NCBI GenBank assembly: GCA_029932855.1
Contig: JAOZPG010000006.1
Location: forward strand, 62,001-126,000
Origin: Bacteroidales bacterium
GTDB taxonomy: Bacteria; Bacteroidota; Bacteroidia; Bacteroidales; VadinHA17
DNA length: 64,000 nt
Direction of reading: 5' to 3'
Shown: in pieces, positions 17,108 through 29,229 of the stretch
How the letters are laid out: every line of letters begins with the position of its first letter
Position numbering within the stretch: position 1 is the stretch's first letter
Notes under the pieces: generated by a model
Database searches by the model: none
What the model was told of the DNA's origin: nothing
What the model saw: the letters and a program-made list of their open reading frames with translations, nothing else
Position numbers and translations under genes: made by a program

Positions 17108-17220
17108 TATTTTCCCTGAATATTTTTTATTAAAAGGGCATAAAAATCCCTGCCGGCACAATCTTTTTGCCGGATTCAGAAATAATATATCATCATTTTG
17201 CTATAAAAAGATTTACTATA

Positions 17221-18744
17221 ATGGACTTAATTATTACAGGAAACGACCTGACAATTGAAGACCTTGTCAATGTTGCCAGGAATAAACAAAAAGTAAAACT
17301 GCACAAGGATGCAGTAAGCAGGATCAATGCCTGCAGGCTTATGCTTGAAAGAAAGATTGAGAAGAAGGAAATAATGTATGGTGTGAATACCGGTATTGGG
17401 GAATTCTCGGAAATGGTCCTTAATGATGACCAGGTAAAGGAATTTCAAAAGTATCTCATATATAATCATGCAGCCGGCATAGGAGACCCCATGCCGGAAG
17501 ATTATGTCAGGGGAGCCATGCTCGGTCGCATAAATGTTCATGCTCATGGCAATTCAGGCTGCAGGCTTGAGATCACACAGACATATGTTGATATGCTTAA
17601 CAAGGGGGTTACCCCCTATGTGTGTCAGAAAGGATCAGTGGGTGCTTCGGGCGATCTTGCACCCATGGCGCAGATAGCCCTTCTCCTTATGGGCGAAGGG
17701 AAGGCCTATTATAAAGGAAAACTGCTTGAGGGCGGGGAGGCAATGGAAAAGGCCGGTATCCCGGTGCCGGGACTTAAGGCAAGGGACGGGCTTGCTGCAA
17801 TAAATGGTTCGAATGCCCTTACGGCCATGAGTGCCCTCTTCCTGTATGATGCAAACAACTGGCTTAAACAAGCCGAAATAGCAGCTGCCATGTCACTGGA
17901 AGCACTGAAGGCGAATATGGGTCCTTATACTCCCAGGCTACATGAAGTAAGGGGTTTTTATGGAGCTATACGATCATCAAAAGCAATTGGCAGGCTGGTA
18001 AAAGGTGGCGACCTGCAGCAGGGCAAGGTAAAAGCCAAAGTACAGGATGCTTATTCCATGAGGTCCAGCCCACAGGTTATAGGTACTGCTCATGATGCAC
18101 TTGCATATGCCAGGTCACAGGTAGAGATAGAGCTTAACGGTGTGGGTGACAATCCTATATTTTTCCCTGAGGAAAACATACAGCTTTCAGGTGCCAATTT
18201 TCAGGGATCACCTGTTGCTTTGCCTATGGATATGGCAGGGGTGGCTATTACTATGGTCAGCGTGCTCTCGGAAAGAAGGCTTAACAGGTTAAATAATCCT
18301 GCACTGAGTGGCGGGCTGCCAGCTTTTCTTACTAAAGGAGCCGGTATGTTCTCAGGGATGATGCTAAGTCAGTATACAGCAGACATGCAAATAGTGGAGC
18401 AAAAACTACTTTCTGCACCTGCCTCTATTCAATCCATACCTGCTGCTGCCGACCAGGAAGACTTTGTTTCCATGGGCATGAATACTGCAATAAAGAACTT
18501 TCAGATACTGGATAATGCTTACGGAGTGCTGGGAATTGAGTTTATGGCTGCCGCACAGGCCCTGGATTTTAGGGACTTTACATTTGGCAGGGGAGTAGAG
18601 ATTGCCAGGCAGATGGTAAGAAAAAATGTTAAGTTTCTCGATATTGACAGGCCCCTGCATGCCGATCATACTAAGATGAAGGAAGTGGTAAAATCCTGCC
18701 AGATACTGGAAGAGGTGGAATTGCAGATGGGTAGCCTGGAGTAA
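17221..18744 (+). CDS. MIO-type aromatic amino acid ammonia-lyase, histidine ammonia-lyase family
   Basis: 507 residues from ATG at 17221; an upstream in-frame TTG at 17167 would only add an unconserved leader. The Ala-Ser-Gly triad that cyclises into the MIO cofactor is in GSVGASGDLAPMAQIAL. Other active-site positions known from HutH are present: Tyr in YGVNTGIG, His in YNHAAGIG, Asn in INGSNALTA, Tyr/Arg in QDAYSMRSSPQ, Phe in GANFQGSP and Glu in DQEDFVSMG. However, HutH normally reads QEDHVSM and SHA; here His is Phe and Ser is Asn. No other hut gene is nearby, so histidine is the likeliest but not a proven substrate. Converges with the vWA gene. Confidence 0.85.
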   Translation: MDLIITGNDLTIEDLVNVARNKQKVKLHKDAVSRINACRLMLERKIEKKEIMYGVNTGIGEFSEMVLNDDQVKEFQKYLIYNHAAGIGDPMPEDYVRGAMLGRINVHAHGNSGCRLEITQTYVDMLNKGVTPYVCQKGSVGASGDLAPMAQIALLLMGEGKAYYKGKLLEGGEAMEKAGIPVPGLKARDGLAAINGSNALTAMSALFLYDANNWLKQAEIAAAMSLEALKANMGPYTPRLHEVRGFYGAIRSSKAIGRLVKGGDLQQGKVKAKVQDAYSMRSSPQVIGTAHDALAYARSQVEIELNGVGDNPIFFPEENIQLSGANFQGSPVALPMDMAGVAITMVSVLSERRLNRLNNPALSGGLPAFLTKGAGMFSGMMLSQYTADMQIVEQKLLSAPASIQSIPAAADQEDFVSMGMNTAIKNFQILDNAYGVLGIEFMAAAQALDFRDFTFGRGVEIARQMVRKNVKFLDIDRPLHADHTKMKEVVKSCQILEEVELQMGSLE

Positions 18745-18746
18745 GC

Positions 18747-20144
18747 TTAAAAAAGTTTCACAGACTGGGAGCTTCCCGATTTTACAGTGATTTTCTTTAC
18801 AGTAGTGTAAAAACTGCGTTTAGCATACTTAGGACGAAAAATAATCTGATAACTCCCGGGCTGAAGTTCGATAGTCTCATGCTTCAGTCCGGGATTAATA
18901 TTATATATCCATTCCAGATCTTTTTCTCTCTGAACATAAATGCTTCCATAGCCGGGGTTTGACATCAACAATGTTACAACACCCGGATCGGGCAGGGTAA
19001 TATTAGTGTTTGTTGCCTGTTTGATATTAAGCTCGTTTACAAATATTCTGGGCAGTACAGGGATCTCAATATCATATTTCCCTTTCAGGTATTTCTCATC
19101 AATATTTACCTTTTGCATGTTAAGGGTGTTCATCTCACCGTGTTTCCTTACAATTACCTTCAGGTCGAGATACCTGCTGCTCCGTGTATTTATTCTTAAG
19201 CTGCCCTGTGGAGTGTCGGCAGCTATTATGGTATGCCTTCCGCTTGAAACACTGATATTGTCAACAATCACTTTTGGAAGGGTATGTATCACCAGCCTGT
19301 AGGTTATCAGTGGGTCAAGGTTTATTGTATCCGGCTTGCCACGGTTATTCATTGTGTGAACATAATGGTGAATCAGCTTTCCCGAGGCCATATCATAAAA
19401 TGTCATATTTACATTTGTTTCAGTAGGCATGCCTTTATCATCAAGAAGATTAACCTGTGCGGTTGTCGAGTTCAGAGCCTCGGTTATCACGACCCCGAGT
19501 ACTTCTTTGAAACTATCCTCATTGTGTGCATTATAGTAGTTGCCCACACATTCAAAGGTTTTCTTAAAGCTTGGGTCAAGGCCTATGCCTATAATAAAAG
19601 GCTTCAGGTAAATACCTTTTTGCTGCAGGTCTTTTGATACTTTACAGGGATCCCCGTCACAGGCTTCTATGCCATCGGTAATAAGTACAACAACATTTCT
19701 GCAGTTGTCGCATTTTGGGAAATCATTGCCGCATAGTGCCAGTGAATTAGCAATGGGAGTGGTACCTCTTGGCCTGAGATATCTTAGTTTCTGTCTTATA
19801 ACTGAGGCATTATTTTTAGAAAACGGAACTTCCAGCTTTGTATCGTTGCAATCCTGGGGGGGTACAACAGACTGATGCCCGTATGCCCTGAGGGCCATTT
19901 CAATATGGTCGAGTTTCTCAAGGCTGTCTATAGTGTGAATTAAGAATTTCTGAGCTATGTTTATTTTTCTGTCACTGTCCCAGTAGCCTGCCATGCTCTG
20001 TGAGCAGTCTAATAAAAACAGTATTCTTGTAGTGGGGGGTACAGGTTCTTTGTCTGATAAAGCAATCTGTGCATTTAAATTTCCGCTAATAAGTGTCAGC
20101 AAAATAATAAGTGATATCCCTGCTGTCCGGATCAAAAATTTCAT
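18747..20144 (-). CDS. Secreted von Willebrand factor A domain protein
   Basis: 465 residues. Signal peptide (to about residue 25, SGNLNAQ) followed by a vWA domain with a complete metal-ion adhesion site: DCSQS (Asp46, Ser48, Ser50), Thr in RPRGTTPIANSL and Asp in VVLITDGIEACDGDPC. Six or so cysteines in this domain (CNDTK, CGNDFPKCDNC, CDGDPC) suggest disulfides in the periplasm. The second half (~220-465) is beta-rich, with repeated segments resembling carboxypeptidase-regulatory-like folds. Ligand unknown. Its stop lies two bases from the ammonia-lyase stop. Confidence 0.88.
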   Translation of the reverse strand: MKFLIRTAGISLIILLTLISGNLNAQIALSDKEPVPPTTRILFLLDCSQSMAGYWDSDRKINIAQKFLIHTIDSLEKLDHIEMALRAYGHQSVVPPQDCNDTKLEVPFSKNNASVIRQKLRYLRPRGTTPIANSLALCGNDFPKCDNCRNVVVLITDGIEACDGDPCKVSKDLQQKGIYLKPFIIGIGLDPSFKKTFECVGNYYNAHNEDSFKEVLGVVITEALNSTTAQVNLLDDKGMPTETNVNMTFYDMASGKLIHHYVHTMNNRGKPDTINLDPLITYRLVIHTLPKVIVDNISVSSGRHTIIAADTPQGSLRINTRSSRYLDLKVIVRKHGEMNTLNMQKVNIDEKYLKGKYDIEIPVLPRIFVNELNIKQATNTNITLPDPGVVTLLMSNPGYGSIYVQREKDLEWIYNINPGLKHETIELQPGSYQIIFRPKYAKRSFYTTVKKITVKSGSSQSVKLF

Positions 20145-20321: not shown

Positions 20322-21419
20322 ATGGGATTAAAATGTGGAATTATCGGTCTGACAAATATTGGCAAGACCACTTTATATAATTGTATTTCAAATACAAGAG
20401 CAGAGATCACCGACTTTGCATATAGCTCGGGAAAATCGAATATGGGCATGGTAAATGTGCCTGATGCAAGGCTTGAAAAACTGGAGAGCATACAGGAAAC
20501 GCAGAAACTCATCCCGACAAGCATGGAAGTATTTGATATCCCGGGACTTGCAAAAGGTGCCAGCAAGGGGGAAGGAATGGGAAACAGTTTTCTTTCCGAT
20601 ATTAGAAATACCGATGCCCTGATACACGTATTGCGTTGCTTTGATGACAATAAGCTGCCTCATATAGAAGGCTCGGTTGATCCTGTACGTGATAAGGAGA
20701 TAGTTGACTTTGAACTTCAGCTGAGAGACCTGGAGTCTGTGGAGAAGAAAATGGAAAAGCTGGCAAAAATGGCCAGGGCGGGAGATAAAGAAGCAAAAAA
20801 GGCACACGAGGTATTAGCGAAATATAAAGCCCATCTTGAAGATTTTCAGCCGGTACGCACTGCTCCTGTAGATGCTGCTGACAAATATTATATTGAGGAT
20901 CTTGCCCTGTTGACTGCCAAGCCTGTAATGTATGTGTGTAACGTTGATGAGGCATCTGCCGTAAAAGGAAATAAATATGTTGAGGACGTCAAGCTTGCAA
21001 TTGAAGGAGAGGATGCGGAGATGCTTGTTATAGCAGGGGGACTGGAGGCAGAGATATCGGAGCTTGAAGAAGAAGCAGACAGGATAGAGTTCCTTGAGGA
21101 GGCAGGATTAAGTGAGCCTGGGATGCATAAGCTTATAAGAGCAGCATACAAGCTGTTAAGGCTCAATACTTTTTTTACTGTTGGGCCCAAAGAGATCAGG
21201 GCATGGACCATGAAAGAGGGAATGACCGCTCCTGAGGCTGCCGGGGTTATTCACAGCGATCTGGAAAGAGGCTTTATCCGGGCAGAGGTTATGCATTATG
21301 ATGATTTTATTGAGCTGGGAGGCGAACAGGCCTGCAAGGACAAGGGCAAATTACATATTGAGGGTAAAAATTATATAGTTAAAGATGGAGATATCCTACA
21401 TATCCGCTTCAATGTCTAG
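20322..21419 (+). CDS. ychF: Redox-responsive ATPase/GTPase YchF (OLA1 family)
   Basis: 365 residues. TRAFAC-class P-loop protein with OBG-like fold that binds ATP as well as GTP and associates with ribosomes. The P loop reads GLTNIGKTTLYN, the G3 motif is VFDIPGLAKGASKGEGMGNSFL, and the nucleotide-specificity loop is NVDE, the YchF-type replacement of NKxD. The C-terminal TGS domain is complete (FFTVGPKEIRAWTM, GFIRAEVMHYDDF, NYIVKDGDILHIRFNV). Its stop overlaps the start of the carboxypeptidase gene (ATGTCTAG), suggesting translational coupling. Confidence 0.96.
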   Translation: MGLKCGIIGLTNIGKTTLYNCISNTRAEITDFAYSSGKSNMGMVNVPDARLEKLESIQETQKLIPTSMEVFDIPGLAKGASKGEGMGNSFLSDIRNTDALIHVLRCFDDNKLPHIEGSVDPVRDKEIVDFELQLRDLESVEKKMEKLAKMARAGDKEAKKAHEVLAKYKAHLEDFQPVRTAPVDAADKYYIEDLALLTAKPVMYVCNVDEASAVKGNKYVEDVKLAIEGEDAEMLVIAGGLEAEISELEEEADRIEFLEEAGLSEPGMHKLIRAAYKLLRLNTFFTVGPKEIRAWTMKEGMTAPEAAGVIHSDLERGFIRAEVMHYDDFIELGGEQACKDKGKLHIEGKNYIVKDGDILHIRFNV

Positions 21420-23103
21420 AAAGTATTTGATTATATCTTTTTTTCTCTTGTTTCTGGCTGCTTTATCCCCTGCACAAGACAATATATCCCTCGCAGAGGC
21501 CTGCCTGGAGGAAAGGGGAGAGCTGATAATTGAATTCGCCAATCCCGGCAGGGAAATACTTGTAAAGGCAGGCAGCTTTATCTCCATCGATAATGTAAGT
21601 GCAGAAAAAGTGAGAGCCTACATAAATAAAGAAGGTTTTTATAGATTCCTGGAGCTGAATATAGATTTCTCAGTTCTTAAAGCTCCTTCGCTTGATGCTG
21701 CTGCAGATGTAAAGGGGGGCAGTTTTTTTGAGCAATATCCTTCATATGATCAGTACGATTCAATAATGAGGAAGTTTGCTGAGGATTACCCCCTGCTTTG
21801 CACTCTTGATACTATAGGATACAGTGTTCAGGACAGGCTTCTTCTGGTGTTAAAGCTGTCAGATAATGTTGGAGTGGATGAGTCAGAACCCGAGTTTTAT
21901 TATACATCCACCATGCATGGAGATGAGACCCTGGGCTTTATGCTTATGCTCAGGCTTATAGATCACCTGCTTTCGAATTATGCTAGCGATATTTATATTA
22001 CCAGCCTGCTTAACTCCATTGAACTTTATATCAATCCCCTGGCCAATCCCGATGGATTTTACAGGGACGGGGGACCTAGCCGTTTTAATGCCTCCAATGT
22101 GGACCTGAACCGTAATTTTCCTGATCCATGGAACGGGCCCCACCCCGACGGAAAAGATTACGCACCGGAGAATACCGCACAGATGGATTTTATGAGATCA
22201 AGGCATTTTGTGATGTCTGCCAATTTTCATTCGGGAGCTGAAGTGGTAAATTATCCATGGGATAACTGGACGTCCTACCAGAAGATTCACCCCGATGACA
22301 GCTGGCTGCAGTTTGTCTCTCATGAATATGCCGATACCGTACATCAATACAGCACAGGCTATATGACCGGTTTTGACAGTGGTGTGACAAATGGGGGAGA
22401 CTGGTATGTAATAGATGGGGGAAGGCAGGATTATGTTACATATTTCCTTTCCGGCAGGGAAGTGACGATTGAACTTGATAATACCAAGATCACCCCCGTG
22501 AGCCAGTTAAATGAGCACTGGGAATATAACTACCGCTCGCTGATTAACTATGCCTGTCAGGCAGGTTATGGTGTGCAGGGACAGGTAAGTGATTCTTCTA
22601 CAGGGATGCCGCTCAAAGCTATGATTAAGATTGCCGGTCATGACCATGACTCATCAATGGTGTTCAGTGAAGCAGGGAATGGCTTTTATGTGAGGCTCCT
22701 GGACGAGGGAATATATGATATTACATTTTCTGCTCCGGGATATTTTGATACTGTCATCACTGATATTTCTGTATTAAACTATCACAGCACTATTCTTAAT
22801 GTAAAAATGCTTCCTTTAGCTGCCGGTGTGGGACCGCTTCCGGAGATAGCGGGACTGAGAATTTTCCCCAATCCTGTTTCTTCCGGTCTTTCTGTTGATT
22901 TCAGTCTTGCAGCTCCCGGAGAGCTTGTGTTTACTGTTTATTCAATGAGTGGCAGGATGGTATTTGTCGAGACTAAATATTTCCGGGAAGGAGATAAGAG
23001 TCACAGCTTACATTTTTCCGGTCTTCCGGCTGGCATTTATTTTCTGCATATAGAAGGGCCCTCATCATGCAGTAGCAGAAAATTCATTAAAGACAGCAGG
23101 TAA
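21412..23103 (+). CDS. M14 zinc carboxypeptidase exported by the type IX secretion system
   Basis: 563 residues from ATG at 21412, which overlaps the ychF stop by eight bases and opens directly with a signal peptide (SRKYLIISFFLLFLAALSPAQ). The M14 domain (~105-375) has the zinc ligands His169 and Glu172 (STMHGDETLG) and His273 (SANFHSGAEV), substrate-site VDLNRNF and catalytic Glu354 (VTIELDNTK). A transthyretin-like beta domain (GVQGQVSDSSTGMPLKAMI) follows. The last ~80 residues are a type A T9SS sorting tail: RIFPNPVSS, YSMSGRMV, GLPAGIYFLHI. It would be exported across the outer membrane and trim C-terminal residues from peptides. Confidence 0.93.
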   Translation: MSRKYLIISFFLLFLAALSPAQDNISLAEACLEERGELIIEFANPGREILVKAGSFISIDNVSAEKVRAYINKEGFYRFLELNIDFSVLKAPSLDAAADVKGGSFFEQYPSYDQYDSIMRKFAEDYPLLCTLDTIGYSVQDRLLLVLKLSDNVGVDESEPEFYYTSTMHGDETLGFMLMLRLIDHLLSNYASDIYITSLLNSIELYINPLANPDGFYRDGGPSRFNASNVDLNRNFPDPWNGPHPDGKDYAPENTAQMDFMRSRHFVMSANFHSGAEVVNYPWDNWTSYQKIHPDDSWLQFVSHEYADTVHQYSTGYMTGFDSGVTNGGDWYVIDGGRQDYVTYFLSGREVTIELDNTKITPVSQLNEHWEYNYRSLINYACQAGYGVQGQVSDSSTGMPLKAMIKIAGHDHDSSMVFSEAGNGFYVRLLDEGIYDITFSAPGYFDTVITDISVLNYHSTILNVKMLPLAAGVGPLPEIAGLRIFPNPVSSGLSVDFSLAAPGELVFTVYSMSGRMVFVETKYFREGDKSHSLHFSGLPAGIYFLHIEGPSSCSSRKFIKDSR

Positions 23104-23172: not shown

Positions 23173-24810
23173 ATGCCTAATTTTTCATTTCTAAAGAAGA
23201 TATGTGCCGGGCTGCTGCCTGTTTCCTTATTTCTTGCCCCGACGTTTATTGCAACAGCTCAGCGTTCAGGCAGGATACCATCAGAGAAGCCCGCACTGAT
23301 CATAGGACTGGTGTTAGACCAGATGCGTCCCGACCAGATATACAGGTACTGGGATAAATTTGGGGATGATGGATTTCGCAAGCTCGTCGATAACGGAACA
23401 GTAATGAGACAGGCAGGCTTTCATTATAATAATACTCAGCCTGCACCGGGCTGTGCAACTATTGCCACCGGAGCACAACCTTCTGTTCATGGCATTGTGT
23501 CTGATTCGTGGTATGAGATGCTTAAGGATGGACTTATTCATTGCACGGATGATAAAAGTGTTAAGCCTGTTGGGGGAGCCTTTGAGCAGGGACAGTATTC
23601 ACCGCATAATATTCTTGTTTCAAGCCTGGGAGATGAGATTAAACTGGCCGGTAAGGATAATAAAGTTTTTTCCATTGGCTGGAGTAATGAATGTGCAATA
23701 ATTTCGGGCGGGCATTCTGCCAACGGAGCTTTCTGGATAGACAGCAGGTCGGGCAGATGGATGACAAGCTCATATTACTGTGAGATGCTGCCCGGCTGGC
23801 TAAATAAGTTTAATGAAAAAGGCTTTCCCGATATTTACCTTGAAAGAATATGGGAGCCACTTCTTCCCCTTGAAGAATATACTGGATATGCTGTTAATAA
23901 AAGTATTTCCCTGCCGGTAGATCTTGAGAGGGAGAGCAGGATAGACAGGAATACCAGGAACTACAGTATGCTCAGGGATACTCCTTACGGGAATACCATG
24001 GTATTGAATATGGCAATGAACCTTATTTACGAAGAGCAGATGGGTAAAGATGAACATGTCGATTATCTGATAATTAACCTGCCGGCCATAGGGGCGGTTG
24101 CAAAAAAATATGGCAGGGAATCTGTTGAGCTTGAAGATGCCTTCCTGAGGCTGGACCAGGATATAGCCCTGCTCTTAAGTTCACTGGATGAATGGGTGGG
24201 AAAAAACAGAATGCTGATCTATCTTACCGCAACACATGGTATGAACCAGGATATTAAATATCTTAAGAATGCCAAAATGCCTGCAGGTGAGTTCGACGGT
24301 AATCAGGCCCTTTCACTGCTGAGGGCATACCTCAATGCAAGGTTCGGTCGTGGGAACTGGGTTAAGTCATATTATGAGAATCAGGTATTTTTAAACCGTT
24401 CCCTTATTGAAGATTCCAGGCTTTCAATAGATGATATACGAAATGAAGTAGCGAATTTTATGATACAGTTTGAGGCTGTTGCCCATGCAATATCAGCCAC
24501 AACCATCACTTCCTCATATTTTCCCGGGGGGATTAATTCGCTCTTGCAAAACGGATATAATGCCAAGCGGTCAGGCGATGTTATGATTGTGCTGAGGAGC
24601 GGATGGAGCATGAAGGGTCAGCACAGGGAAGGAACAGGCTATAATTATGGCAGGAAGGTTCCTCTTATCTGGTATGGCTGGAAGGTGAGGCGTAAGACAA
24701 TTCACAGGGAGGTGGATATGTCTGATATTGCCCCCACAATTTCATATTTTTTAGATATTTCCGTACCCGATGCCAGTACGGGGAAACCAATATTGGATAT
24801 GCTGGAATAA
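23173..24810 (+). CDS. PafA-like alkaline phosphatase superfamily protein, probably catalytically dead
   Basis: 545 residues with a signal peptide (to ~30). The overall layout follows the PafA-type phosphatases of Bacteroidetes: IGLVLDQMRPDQIYRYWDKFGDDGFRKL, PSVHGIVSDSWYE, VFSIGWSNECAIISGGHSANGAFWID and VPLIWYGW. Most catalytic positions have changed. The nucleophile Thr is Pro90 (in NNTQPAPGCATIATG) and the following His is Cys94. The Lys/Arg pair is Ser171/Glu173. The Asp and His zinc ligands of the STDYVGH segment are Gly307 and Lys311. TADHG is TATHG, and the last His ligand is Lys495. Only Asp49 and His355 remain. Alignment is by eye. An exported pseudoenzyme is the best reading. Confidence 0.85.
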   Translation: MPNFSFLKKICAGLLPVSLFLAPTFIATAQRSGRIPSEKPALIIGLVLDQMRPDQIYRYWDKFGDDGFRKLVDNGTVMRQAGFHYNNTQPAPGCATIATGAQPSVHGIVSDSWYEMLKDGLIHCTDDKSVKPVGGAFEQGQYSPHNILVSSLGDEIKLAGKDNKVFSIGWSNECAIISGGHSANGAFWIDSRSGRWMTSSYYCEMLPGWLNKFNEKGFPDIYLERIWEPLLPLEEYTGYAVNKSISLPVDLERESRIDRNTRNYSMLRDTPYGNTMVLNMAMNLIYEEQMGKDEHVDYLIINLPAIGAVAKKYGRESVELEDAFLRLDQDIALLLSSLDEWVGKNRMLIYLTATHGMNQDIKYLKNAKMPAGEFDGNQALSLLRAYLNARFGRGNWVKSYYENQVFLNRSLIEDSRLSIDDIRNEVANFMIQFEAVAHAISATTITSSYFPGGINSLLQNGYNAKRSGDVMIVLRSGWSMKGQHREGTGYNYGRKVPLIWYGWKVRRKTIHREVDMSDIAPTISYFLDISVPDASTGKPILDMLE

Positions 24811-24867: not shown

Positions 24868-25842
24868 ATGAGATTTTTGAAAATGAAAACCCTTATCGTT
24901 CTGGTCCTGTTAATTAGTACTGTAAGTGTTTTTGCACAGACAAAAAAGGAAGCGGTAGATGCCTATAATAAAGGAGCTGCTGCGATTGCTTCCGATCCTG
25001 CTGGTGCGGTAGCAGCATTTGAAGAATGTATTGCCATTAGCAAACAACTTGGTGAAGAAGGAGAAGAAACTTATAATAATGCAGCCAAACAAATTCCGGG
25101 ATTACATTATAAGATTGCCATGATAGCCTATAAGAAAAAGGATTTTCCTGTAGCAATTAAAGAATTTGAGAAAGCAATGGATACTGGTGATACCTATAAT
25201 AATGAGCAGATTGCCGGCAAAGCTAATAAGGTAATCCCCCAGGTTTATAATATTTCAGCTACAAACCATTATAAGAATAAAAGATACGAAGAAGCCCTGG
25301 TTTGTTTTGATAAGGCAATTGAGTATAAGCCGGATTATGCAAAGCCATACTTAGGGAAAGCAGGGGTTTATAAGAAGCAGGGAGATAGCGGAAAGATGAT
25401 TGAGATGTGTGACAAGGCAATTGAGCTTGGTAAAAAGACCAATGATAAGAAAACAGCAGGCAGTGCCATGAAGCTTGCTAAAAATTCCATGTTTAACCAG
25501 GCCGTTTCATTTATTGGTAAAGAGCAGTGGCCCGAGGCTGAAAGCTCACTTAACAAGTCTATAGCCTATGGAAATAAAACTCCTGATGCATACTATCAGC
25601 TGGGTAAAGTATTAAGTTCCCAGAAAAAATGGGATGAAGCAATTGCCAGTCTGAATAAAGCCATAGAGCTGGATGCTGAAAGCGACAATGTTGCCAAGGC
25701 CAAGTATTATTTTGAGCTGGGAGATGCTTATTTAGGCTCGGGTGACAGTAGTGCTGCCTGTGCTGCCTATAAGAATGCTGTTTATGGTGATTATGCGGCA
25801 AATGCCAAATATCAGGTAGAGCAGGTGCTTAAGTGCAAATAA
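24868..25842 (+). CDS. Exported tetratricopeptide-repeat protein
   Basis: 324 residues with a signal peptide (LIVLVLLISTVSVFAQ). At least five TPR-like helix pairs follow, recognisable by the Ala/Gly/Tyr pattern: AVDAYNKGAAAIASDPAGAVAAFEECI, HYKIAMIAYKKKDFPVAIKEFEKAM, HYKNKRYEEALVCFDKAIEYKPDYAKPYLGKAGVY, AYYQLGKVLSSQKKWDEAIASLNKAIEL and YYFELGDAYLGSGDSSAACAAYKNAV. Such periplasmic TPR proteins act as scaffolds; partner unknown. It stands alone, with a -7 box before and a terminator after. Confidence 0.88.
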   Translation: MRFLKMKTLIVLVLLISTVSVFAQTKKEAVDAYNKGAAAIASDPAGAVAAFEECIAISKQLGEEGEETYNNAAKQIPGLHYKIAMIAYKKKDFPVAIKEFEKAMDTGDTYNNEQIAGKANKVIPQVYNISATNHYKNKRYEEALVCFDKAIEYKPDYAKPYLGKAGVYKKQGDSGKMIEMCDKAIELGKKTNDKKTAGSAMKLAKNSMFNQAVSFIGKEQWPEAESSLNKSIAYGNKTPDAYYQLGKVLSSQKKWDEAIASLNKAIELDAESDNVAKAKYYFELGDAYLGSGDSSAACAAYKNAVYGDYAANAKYQVEQVLKCK

Positions 25843-25926: not shown

Positions 25927-26655
25927 TTATTCTTTATCCCTTACTTTTGCCAGCTCTGCTATCAGATCAGGTCTTTTTTCAATAGCATTTCCCACAACAA
26001 TAATATCTGCTCCTGCCCGGTAAGCTTCTTCAGCCTTTTTTGCATTGTTTATTCCTCCGCCCACAATAAGAGGAATTGATATAGAGCCTTTTACATCCCT
26101 GATCATTTTTTCGGAAACAGCTTTTTCCGCTCCGCTTCCGCCTTCAAGATAGATCATCTTGTGGCCTATCATCTCGCCGGCCATTGCAGTGGCTACGGCT
26201 ATGTCGGTCTTATGTTCAGGTATGGCCATTGAGTTACTAAGGTAGCCTACGGATGTTTCATTGGCGTTACCGGTAAGAATATAGCCTGTTGACAGTACTT
26301 CAAGTCCGAATTTCTTTATTACAGGTGCAGCAGCAACATGATTGCCAATAAGGTTTTCAGGATTCCTGCCCGATATAAGAGATATAAGCAATATGCCGTC
26401 TGCTTTTTCAGATATCTGCATCAGGCTGCCAGGAAAGATGATAACAGGAATATCACACAGGTCTTTTATCCTGCATATAGTATCGTCCAGTCCCGCTGAT
26501 ACCAGGCTGCCGCCAACAAGTATCAGGTCCACCCTGTGTTTGTTTGCCAGGTCTGAAACATATTCCAGATCTTTCTTTGGAAAGTTTTCAGGGTCTATTA
26601 ATATAGCAAGGAGCTTATGCTCTTTTAGCTTTGCTTTGATTGATTTTAACAGCAT
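25927..26655 (-). CDS. Geranylgeranylglyceryl phosphate synthase family protein (bacterial PcrB/GGGPS-like)
   Basis: 242 residues, a TIM-barrel prenyltransferase that joins a polyprenyl diphosphate to sn-glycerol-1-phosphate to form the ether bond typical of archaeal lipids. Family motifs: ILIDPENFPKKDL, LILVGGSLV, IIFPGSLMQISEKADGILLISLISGRNPE, MIYLEGGSGAEKAVS, IPLIVGGGINNAKKAEEAYRAGADIIVVGNAIE. Bacteroidetes are known to carry a hexameric group of this enzyme; the product's role there is unclear. It is the last gene of the apparent ssb-gldE-gldD-PPTase operon, six bases after the PPTase stop. Confidence 0.92.
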   Translation of the reverse strand: MLLKSIKAKLKEHKLLAILIDPENFPKKDLEYVSDLANKHRVDLILVGGSLVSAGLDDTICRIKDLCDIPVIIFPGSLMQISEKADGILLISLISGRNPENLIGNHVAAAPVIKKFGLEVLSTGYILTGNANETSVGYLSNSMAIPEHKTDIAVATAMAGEMIGHKMIYLEGGSGAEKAVSEKMIRDVKGSISIPLIVGGGINNAKKAEEAYRAGADIIVVGNAIEKRPDLIAELAKVRDKE

Positions 26656-26661
26656 ATTATT

Positions 26662-27291
26662 TTATTTCCAACACATTACGCTTATATAATCGCCCGACCT
26701 GAAGTAGGACAGGTCAAATTGATTTTCCTGGTCATCTCTTATTACAGTTCCTTTCAAATAGCCCGACTCCTTTACTTCAAAAGGGGAAATGATAATACTT
26801 TCTTTAAAGTTAAGATTGCCTTTGTCACATATCTTATACAGGGCTTCCTTGGCACACCAGTGGATATACAAATGATATCGCTTCAGTTCGGGGTCTTTTG
26901 TAATTACCTCCTTATCATTTATGAACTTATGAGCTATAGACCTGATACGGTGCGACATAAATTCCAGGTCTATCCCCACCCGCCTGGTTTTGCTAAGCAA
27001 AACAGAAGTAAGATTTTTTGAATGTGATATGCTTATATTGTGGCTCTTGTCCCTGAGGGAAGGCTTATTGGTCTTGTTATATATTATTCTGGCATTTCTT
27101 CCCAGCATTTCTTTAAGCAGTATCCTTACACTTAAGTATTCCAGTTTTCTTTCATAAGACTTAAAGCCGTTTATTCTAGTAAGCTCATCAGCTTCAAGTG
27201 TAATTTGTGCAAGTAATTCCCCAAGATTTTCCTTTATCTCCCAACTGCCAAGAAGGCAATTCTCTATTTCTCTTTTTTCTATGAGTCCCAT
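26662..27291 (-). CDS. 4'-phosphopantetheinyl transferase superfamily protein
   Basis: 209 residues, close to Sfp-type size. It transfers 4'-phosphopantetheine from CoA to a carrier-protein serine. The two signature motifs are present: VGIDLEFMSHRI (Mg-binding Asp and Glu) and HWCAKEALYKI (W..KEA.yK). It lies between gldD (26-base gap) and the GGGPS gene. No carrier protein is encoded nearby, so its target (fatty acid ACP or an aryl polyene/flexirubin-type ACP) cannot be told from this window. Confidence 0.9.
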   Translation of the reverse strand: MGLIEKREIENCLLGSWEIKENLGELLAQITLEADELTRINGFKSYERKLEYLSVRILLKEMLGRNARIIYNKTNKPSLRDKSHNISISHSKNLTSVLLSKTRRVGIDLEFMSHRIRSIAHKFINDKEVITKDPELKRYHLYIHWCAKEALYKICDKGNLNFKESIIISPFEVKESGYLKGTVIRDDQENQFDLSYFRSGDYISVMCWK

Positions 27292-27317
27292 CAGAGGTTT
27301 AATTTACACAAAAGCTG

Positions 27318-27914
27318 TTAATTCCACTTAAAACTGTCTATAAAGTGGATAATATCTTCTTTAAAAAAGGCTATTACCGGAGTCAGCGAATCTTTATCAA
27401 TAGTGGTCCTGAAATATAGAGCGCCACGTAAAAAATGACGACTGCTGTCGGTAAGAAAGAACTGTACAGATGAAGCAACATCTCCTTCCAGGCTGTAAAG
27501 GATACCATATACATCATCATCATCTTTCCTTATCACTTGTTCCTGTATTTCTTCAGCCTTAACAGTATGTTTATATGCCAGGGTATAGCTGTCTTCAATA
27601 TATGCATTCAGGTTATTGTTCACCTTCTTATAACTGATATGTATTTTTCCGTTGTATGCAGGGAACACAATATTTATCCAGCAAGGCTCGGCATCAGGCT
27701 CGGCATCTTTTACGACATTACCATATACCGGATATTCAAATGAATAGGGGCAGGGGCCATTGTAAGTCCTGTATGCTTTTTCAGGAAAATTGATACGGTA
27801 ATAGCCCCTGGGCCTGGGAGTGTGAGCCTGCCTGCATGAAGCCATAAGCAGTAATAAGGCTAATGTTAAGAGAGAAAGCCGGGAAAGCTGTTTATTTATT
27901 TTTCTTCTTATCAA
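27318..27914 (-). CDS. gldD: Gliding motility lipoprotein GldD
   Basis: 198 residues. An N-terminal lipoprotein signal (LTLALLLLMASC) puts lipidation on Cys27. Family stretches are RPRGYYRINFPEKAYRTYNGPCPYSFEYP and CWINIVFPAYNGKIHISYK, and the C-terminus FFKEDIIHFIDSFKWN is typical. GldD is needed for gliding in Flavobacterium johnsoniae. Non-gliding Bacteroidetes also keep it. Its start overlaps the end of gldE by 23 bases, so the two are translationally linked. Confidence 0.94.
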   Translation of the reverse strand: MIRRKINKQLSRLSLLTLALLLLMASCRQAHTPRPRGYYRINFPEKAYRTYNGPCPYSFEYPVYGNVVKDAEPDAEPCWINIVFPAYNGKIHISYKKVNNNLNAYIEDSYTLAYKHTVKAEEIQEQVIRKDDDDVYGILYSLEGDVASSVQFFLTDSSRHFLRGALYFRTTIDKDSLTPVIAFFKEDIIHFIDSFKWN

Positions 27915-29229
27915 GCCTGGTAATTTTTATTTTTTTAATTCTTCTTTTATCAACAGAATATATCCTGAATTCAAGCCCCCCAATAATGAAAGTCTCATCT
28001 TTGCCGGGTATTTCTCCATTCACTTCCAGCACCAGGCCGGCAAGGGTGTCGGCATCACCTTTAATATCATCGAAAATATTTTCACTACTGTTAAGCAGCT
28101 TATAGAAATCCACTAAAAGGGTTTTTCCTTCAAATATCCAGCTGGAATCGTCTATGCGTGTATAATATTTTTCTTCATCATCAAACTCATCCCTAATCTC
28201 TCCCACAATTTCTTCCAGTATATCTTCCAGGGTAACTATCCCGCTTGTTCCTCCATATTCATCAATAACAATTGCCATATGTATTTTTTTCCTCTGAAAT
28301 TCTTCAAGCAGGTCGTTTATTTTTTTTGTTTCCGGAACGAAATAGGGAGATCGGATCAGCGATTGCCATTTAAAGCGTACGTTCTTTTTTAAGTGAGGGA
28401 AAAGGTCTTTTATATACAATATACCTTTGATCTGGTCAAAAGACTTGAGGTAAACAGGCACCCTTGAATAACCCGATTCAAGAACAGCTTTAAGCAAGTC
28501 ATCGAAACTTGTTGACATGTCAACAGCAAATACATCCAGTCTTGATCGCATTATCTCTTTGGCATCGGTATTTCCGAATTTTACTATTCCCTCCAGTATT
28601 TGTTTGTCTTCGGTAATTTTTGTCTCTGCAAGCGAAAGGGCATCTGAAAGCTCATCCATTGAAACATTTTGTTTCTTCAGAGTCAGGCGTTTGTTTACAA
28701 AATTGGTTGACGAAACAAGCACCATGGTCAGAGGCATAAAAATGGTTTGCAGGGCAGAAATACCCAAAGCCATGAAACATGAGAATTTTACATTATAGCT
28801 ATTGGCATATATTTTTGGTAATATCTCACCAAAGAGCAAAAGGAAAAATGTGATAAATACCACCTGTGCAAGAAAACCCAGCAGTCTTGCATCACCGAAG
28901 TCAACAAGAGAATTACTTAGATAGGAGGATATAATAACTATTGCAACATTAACAAAGTTATTGGCAACCAGTATGGTGCCAAGCAGATACTCAGGGCGTG
29001 ACAACAGATGCAAAATCTTTTTTGATGAAGCACTGTCCTTGTATTTCAGCCTGGAAAGCTGTGAAGGAGAGAGTGAAAAGAAAGCAATCTCCGATCCTGA
29101 TATCAGCGCCGAACATATCAATAGTAGCAGTACAAAAGCCATCCATGCAATTATGCCTGCTGAGGGGGCTAAAAAAACGATCTCGGTTTTAGCCAGTATA
29201 GTTAACGGAATAAAAGTTTCCGGTTCCAA
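27892..29229 (-). CDS. gldE: Gliding motility-associated protein GldE (CNNM/CorC-like membrane protein)
   Basis: 445 residues. Layout: DUF21/CNNM transmembrane domain (~20-190) with SALISGSEIAFFSLSPSQLSRLK and LLFGEILPKIYANSYN; a pair of CBS domains (~215-345) with VFAVDMSTSFDDLLKAVLESGYSRVPVY and HMAIVIDEYGGTSGIVTLEDILEEIVGEIRDE; and a CorC/HlyC C-terminal domain (~355-435). CNNM/CorC proteins are implicated in magnesium or cobalt export; GldE in Flavobacterium supports gliding together with GldD. The start appears to be TTG at 29229, 22 bases after the ssb stop. Confidence 0.93.
   Translation of the reverse strand: MEPETFIPLTILAKTEIVFLAPSAGIIAWMAFVLLLLICSALISGSEIAFFSLSPSQLSRLKYKDSASSKKILHLLSRPEYLLGTILVANNFVNVAIVIISSYLSNSLVDFGDARLLGFLAQVVFITFFLLLFGEILPKIYANSYNVKFSCFMALGISALQTIFMPLTMVLVSSTNFVNKRLTLKKQNVSMDELSDALSLAETKITEDKQILEGIVKFGNTDAKEIMRSRLDVFAVDMSTSFDDLLKAVLESGYSRVPVYLKSFDQIKGILYIKDLFPHLKKNVRFKWQSLIRSPYFVPETKKINDLLEEFQRKKIHMAIVIDEYGGTSGIVTLEDILEEIVGEIRDEFDDEEKYYTRIDDSSWIFEGKTLLVDFYKLLNSSENIFDDIKGDADTLAGLVLEVNGEIPGKDETFIIGGLEFRIYSVDKRRIKKIKITRLDKKKNK

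What the first reader, a model, noticed from the sequence alone, without database searches (positions are those of the whole stretch)
23173..24810. Exported PafA-like pseudo-phosphatase with most catalytic residues replaced
Hand alignment to the PafA phosphatase layout shows nucleophile Thr to Pro90, adjacent His to Cys94, Lys/Arg to Ser171/Glu173, STDYVGH Asp/His to Gly307/Lys311, TADHG Asp to Thr354 and the last zinc His to Lys495, while the scaffold motifs persist. A secreted protein that kept the fold but lost zinc and nucleophile may be a binding or regulatory protein.
Basis: partly seen in the sequence, partly recalled or inferred. Interest (0 to 1): 0.72.

Follow-up and report, generated by a model that had tools for sequence, protein, structure and literature searches.

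The report
Dead-enzyme PafA family across Bacteroidales
This gene makes an exported protein shaped like the PafA phosphatase but with nearly all of its working parts replaced, and it belongs to a large, ancient and still actively preserved family of such disabled phosphatases in Bacteroidales that has probably taken on a new, non-enzymatic job.

Summary
ORF 23173-24810 is a full-length PafA homologue (5tj3, E 1.7e-103). Its AF2 model (pLDDT 89) matches PafA at TM 0.88/0.92, yet 8 of 10 catalytic or zinc residues are replaced: T79P, N100D, K162S, R164E, D305G, H309K, D352T, H486E. Only D49 (D38) and H355 (H353) remain. One reader detail is off: K495 is not the last zinc His; that site is E486, in a poorly modelled loop.

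It is not an isolated dead gene. In 178 non-redundant homologues, scores out of 10 are bimodal: 135 keep 0-6, 43 keep 9-10. Degraded proteins were found only in the window's order; every PafA tested outside it scored 10/10. About 86 of 148 good genomes of the order carry a degraded copy. Selection is purifying (median dN/dS 0.08). Many copies sit between ychF-M14 peptidase and gldD/gldE; a second branch lies between lnb and secA.

Best reading: an exported pseudophosphatase family working as a binding or regulatory protein. Loss of activity is inferred from sequence; partner and function are unknown. New variant of a known kind.

The parts
23173..24810 (+). PafA-like pseudophosphatase, 545 aa, PF01663
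   Evidence: phmmer to PafA 5tj3 E 1.7e-103; Pfam 96.6 bits vs cut-off 23; NCBIfam alk_phos_PafA 492.9 bits, below its 650 cut-off; AF2/Foldseek
23173..23262 (+). predicted signal peptide (about residues 1-30)
   Evidence: hydrophobic helix 5-28 then ATA|Q; full-length orthologues have a similar leader, mostly ending AQ/SQ/GQ; by eye, no predictor run
23440..23442 (+). Pro90 in place of nucleophile Thr79
23683..23691 (+). Ser171-Asn172-Glu173 in place of Lys162/Asp163/Arg164 (phosphate binding)
24091..24105 (+). Gly307...Lys311 in place of zinc ligands Asp305/His309
24232..24237 (+). Thr354-His355 in place of Asp352-His353 (His kept)
24292..24477 (+). residues 374-435: block conserved in the degraded clade but variable in intact PafA (F374, L383, Y386, L387, G392, W396, Q404, L407, N408, L411, I412, E413, F429)
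   Evidence: entropy comparison; candidate new functional surface (inference)
21415..23103 (+). upstream M14 carboxypeptidase with T9SS sorting tail; recurrent same-strand neighbour
   Evidence: upstream in 29 of 59 testable loci
24868..25842 (+). TPR protein downstream, present in some relatives
25927..29229 (-). convergent GGGPS - PPTase-like - GldD - GldE block, conserved beside the gene in many relatives

Best explanation
The gene encodes an exported (periplasmic or secreted) protein of the PafA fold that can no longer work as a PafA-type two-zinc phosphatase: no nucleophile, no Lys/Arg/Asn phosphate clamp, at most two of six zinc ligands. It descends from an active PafA within Bacteroidales and belongs to a widespread clade in which the catalytic pocket has been dismantled while scaffold and gene are preserved by purifying selection. 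Most likely it acts by binding: the conserved segment of residues about 374-435 contacts a cell-envelope partner or ligand, and the old pocket is free to drift. Shown: homology, fold model, residue loss, clade-wide pattern, selection, synteny. Inferred: inactivity, export, and the binding role. Unknown: the partner.
For: Residue tables and alignments; bimodal 0-6 versus 9-10 of 10, and none of 135 degraded proteins keeps both Lys162 and Arg164, or both zinc sites with a Thr/Ser nucleophile. Charge at 100/162/164 flips from +2 in enzymes to -1 (query -2). The 10 catalytic columns plus neighbouring H83 have entropy 1.6-3.6 in the degraded set against about 0 in enzymes, while 41 other enzyme-invariant columns average only 0.65. 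dN/dS median 0.079 over 78 non-independent pairs. Fold retained: TM 0.88/0.92 to 5too for the query, 0.83/0.84 for the distant secA-linked branch. Present in about 86 of 148 genomes of the order. Six genomes carry a separate intact PafA as well.
Against: No activity, metal content, partner or phenotype was measured. AF2 can carry a fold over from homology. Some relatives, not the query, keep the Zn1 triad (15 of 135) and could hold one metal. Three intact-looking proteins (L096, L241, L244) fall inside or at the base of the clade, so one or several losses cannot be decided (AU p 0.22). Query lineage dS is saturated, so selection is shown for relatives rather than for this exact branch.
Confidence: 0.72

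Rival explanations
1. It is a re-purposed hydrolase: a different nucleophile and metal set in the same pocket catalyses another reaction.
For: D49 and H355 are kept and E486 is potentially a ligand; some relatives keep the Zn1 triad plus a Ser at position 79.
Against: Pocket residues differ widely between lineages and several are among the more variable columns; a new enzyme would be expected to fix a new consistent set.
Confidence: 0.12
2. It is an accessory part of the type IX secretion/gliding machinery, as its place beside gldD/gldE suggests.
For: Synteny with GldD/GldE, T9SS-tailed M14 peptidase upstream; the genome has SprA.
Against: 5 of 8 SprA-negative genomes still carry the gene, against about 85 of 140 SprA-positive ones: no association, though nearly all genomes are SprA-positive so power is low. 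The secA-linked branch has left the gldDE locus.
Confidence: 0.12
3. It is a decaying pseudogene or relic on the way to loss.
For: Active site scrambled; about 40% of genomes of the order lack the gene.
Against: Open frames, dN/dS about 0.08, conserved scaffold and a clade-specific conserved block across very deep divergence.
Confidence: 0.03

Closest known systems
PafA alkaline phosphatase (Elizabethkingia meningoseptica, PDB 5tj3/5too; NCBIfam NF042991)
   Same: Full-length homology (about 35% identity), same predicted fold, exported, Bacteroidota
   Different: 8 of 10 catalytic/zinc residues replaced; below the family's curated cut-off
SPAP/PhoK (3q3q, 5xwi)
   Same: Same fold, E 1.2e-27
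   Different: SPAP has all catalytic residues
PbgA/YejM/LapC of Enterobacteria
   Same: From my own knowledge, a precedent for an alkaline-phosphatase-superfamily protein whose main role is regulatory (LPS/LpxC control with LapB; see abstracts); note that PMC7576196 reports YejM to be a metalloenzyme
   Different: PbgA is an inner-membrane protein with a large membrane domain; this protein has only a leader helix and hits PF01663; no close relationship is claimed

Membership tests
PafA alkaline phosphatase (NF042991 equivalog) | score over curated cut-off 650 bits | tested here: not met
   492.9 bits
PafA alkaline phosphatase (NF042991 equivalog) | Thr79 nucleophile with Asn100, Lys162, Arg164 | tested here: not met
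   P90, D111, S171, E173
PafA alkaline phosphatase (NF042991 equivalog) | six zinc ligands D38, D305, H309, D352, H353, H486 (assignment from own knowledge plus invariance in intact homologues) | tested here: not met
   only D49 and H355 kept
PafA alkaline phosphatase (NF042991 equivalog) | PafA fold | tested here: met
   model pLDDT 89.2, TM 0.88/0.92, rmsd 2.3 to 5too
PafA alkaline phosphatase (NF042991 equivalog) | phosphomonoesterase activity | not testable with these tools
   needs an assay
PF01663 Phosphodiest domain family | Pfam score over 23 bits | tested here: met
   96.6 bits
PbgA/YejM-type regulator | multi-helix membrane domain and sulfatase-type (PF00884) periplasmic domain (definition from own knowledge) | tested here: not met
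   only a leader helix in the model and only PF01663 in Pfam
T9SS component | co-occurrence with core T9SS (SprA) | tested here: not met
   present in 5 of 8 SprA-negative genomes

The most novel reading that the evidence does not exclude
An order-wide pseudophosphatase family that serves as a conserved envelope-biogenesis factor of Bacteroidales, genetically tied to lipoprotein maturation and export (lnb-pseudoPafA-secA in one branch, gldD/gldE in another), with a new interaction face at residues 374-435.
Probability: 0.25. Interest if true: 0.8.

Novelty: new variant of a known kind. Interest (0 to 1): 0.6.

Why it matters
Most PafA-like genes of Bacteroidales sampled here lack the PafA catalytic set, so annotating them as alkaline phosphatases (including in phosphorus-cycle surveys) would be wrong for this order. 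A main PafA survey removed sequences lacking key residues (PMC8812569), so proteins like these would have been filtered out of view. The conserved-yet-dead scaffold next to envelope genes, including lnb and secA in Bacteroides-like genomes, offers a testable handle on an uncharacterised envelope protein.

Tried and rejected
Query-specific decay or sequencing error: rejected, because the pattern is clade-wide. T9SS dependence: no association with SprA, low power. Operon with gldD: rejected, the block is convergent. Dead genes elsewhere in the class: none found; all 14 out-of-order hits fetched (of 20) at 100-650 bits, and all 30 top-scoring hits, scored 10/10. Single versus multiple loss: the AU test on 105 rows did not finish; on 47 rows a single degraded clade is not rejected, p 0.22. 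Another alkaline phosphatase in the genome: no PhoA (PF00245) and no second PafA; PhoX and PhoD were not searched. Lnb was not detected in the window genome, so the lnb link does not extend to it. Literature searches found no description of this family; coverage is open-licence papers only. Mapping the conserved block on 3D coordinates could not be done with the tools at hand.

Full report
Observation. The ORF at 23173-24810 (545 aa) is a full-length PafA homologue (phmmer to 5tj3, E 1.7e-103; PF01663 96.6 bits) and scores 492.9 bits on the curated PafA equivalog model, well under its 650-bit cut-off. Residue by residue: T79 is P90, N100 is D111, K162 is S171, R164 is E173, D305 is G307, H309 is K311, D352 is T354, H486 is E486; D38 (D49) and H353 (H355) remain. 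That T79, N100, K162 and R164 are the catalytic set is also given by the title of 5too; the zinc-ligand assignment rests on my knowledge of PafA plus their invariance in intact homologues.

Fold. AF2 with a 24-member alignment gives pLDDT 89.2 and pTM 0.88. The best solved structures are PafA 5tj3 and 5too, TM 0.88/0.92 and rmsd 2.3 for the latter. A member of a distant branch (L200) models at pLDDT 87 and also finds PafA first.

Not an isolated case. Counting 10 catalytic/zinc positions over 178 non-redundant homologues gives 0:5, 1:41, 2:37, 3:23, 4:14, 5:14, 6:1, 9:1, 10:42: two groups with almost nothing between. All fetched PafA homologues from other orders of the class score 10/10. A profile search of 148 good genomes of the window's order found long matches in 90; among newly fetched proteins 59 of 64 are degraded and 5 intact; three genomes (G064, G314, G316) have only an intact or 9/10 protein and one (G301) was not classified, leaving about 86. 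G060, G065, G237, G315, G337 and G376 carry both an intact and a degraded protein (in G065 the intact one is in two fragments at contig ends).

Where the constraint went. In the degraded set the catalytic columns (and H83) have entropies 1.55-3.61, while 41 other columns invariant in enzymes average 0.65. Position 38 is least changed (mostly Asp or Glu). The phosphate clamp N100/K162/R164 changes from mean charge +2 to -1, and to -2 in the query; no degraded protein keeps both K162 and R164, none keeps both zinc sites with a Thr/Ser at 79, and 15 keep the Zn1 triad. Conversely, residues about 374-435 are conserved in the degraded set and variable in enzymes. Pairs of degraded genes with dS under 1.6 have median dN/dS 0.079 (range 0.036-0.185; pairs overlap, and some loci are the same genome fetched twice). 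Against its same-genus relative L008 the query has dN 0.22 with synonymous sites saturated.

History. With the catalytic columns removed, the Bacteroidales clade is well supported in a 47-row tree (SH-aLRT 100) and present in two larger trees (support 86 and 95). It contains three intact proteins (L096, L241, L244). One loss with imprecise placement of these, or several losses, both remain possible (AU p 0.22).

Surroundings. In 80 named loci the gene often follows ychF and an M14 peptidase (29 of 59 testable) and converges on GGGPS-PPTase-gldD-gldE (GldD in 28 of 42). In the window GldD, GldE, GGGPS and SSB were identified by profile. In the branch with Bacteroides-like members the order is lnb - pseudoPafA - secA; Lnb and SecA were confirmed by profile in L200, and in most other members only by ORF size, sequence start and position. 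L211 groups with that branch but lies at the gldDE locus, which links the two. SprA co-occurrence argues against T9SS dependence. Synteny here may largely reflect vertical inheritance and is weak evidence for function.

Interpretation. The best-supported statement is that this is an ancient exported pseudophosphatase family under purifying selection. That it binds a partner or ligand through the 374-435 region is inference. The acidic former phosphate site speaks against a simple phosphate sensor. It works like a pseudoenzyme; it is a member of the PafA homology family but not of the PafA enzyme family. A 2022 PafA survey retained only ORFs with the key residues (468 isolate ORFs, 423 kept; PMC8812569), so this kind of sequence was set aside there; whether those removed include this clade was not checked.

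Noticed in passing
L200:4757-10914 and similar loci L201-L203, L208, L212-L218: Degraded PafA homologue lies between lipoprotein N-acyltransferase lnb and secA in Bacteroides-like genomes.
   Followed up: partly
L096:9992-11635, L241, L244: Intact 10/10 PafA proteins that group with the degraded Bacteroidales clade; useful as active controls.
   Followed up: partly
window 21415-23103: M14 carboxypeptidase with T9SS sorting tail, recurrent neighbour; a subtilase (S8) plus a small protein follow the gene in other relatives (e.g. L096, L091, L221).
   Followed up: partly
G000:C16:52483-53118 and G000:C10:8-367 (L001, L002): Two pieces of strong PF01663 matches, one at the very end of a contig, possibly one gene split by assembly.
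   Followed up: no
window 17167-20144: Histidine ammonia-lyase-like gene convergent with a vWA-domain-like protein; both recur in the neighbourhood of relatives.
   Followed up: no
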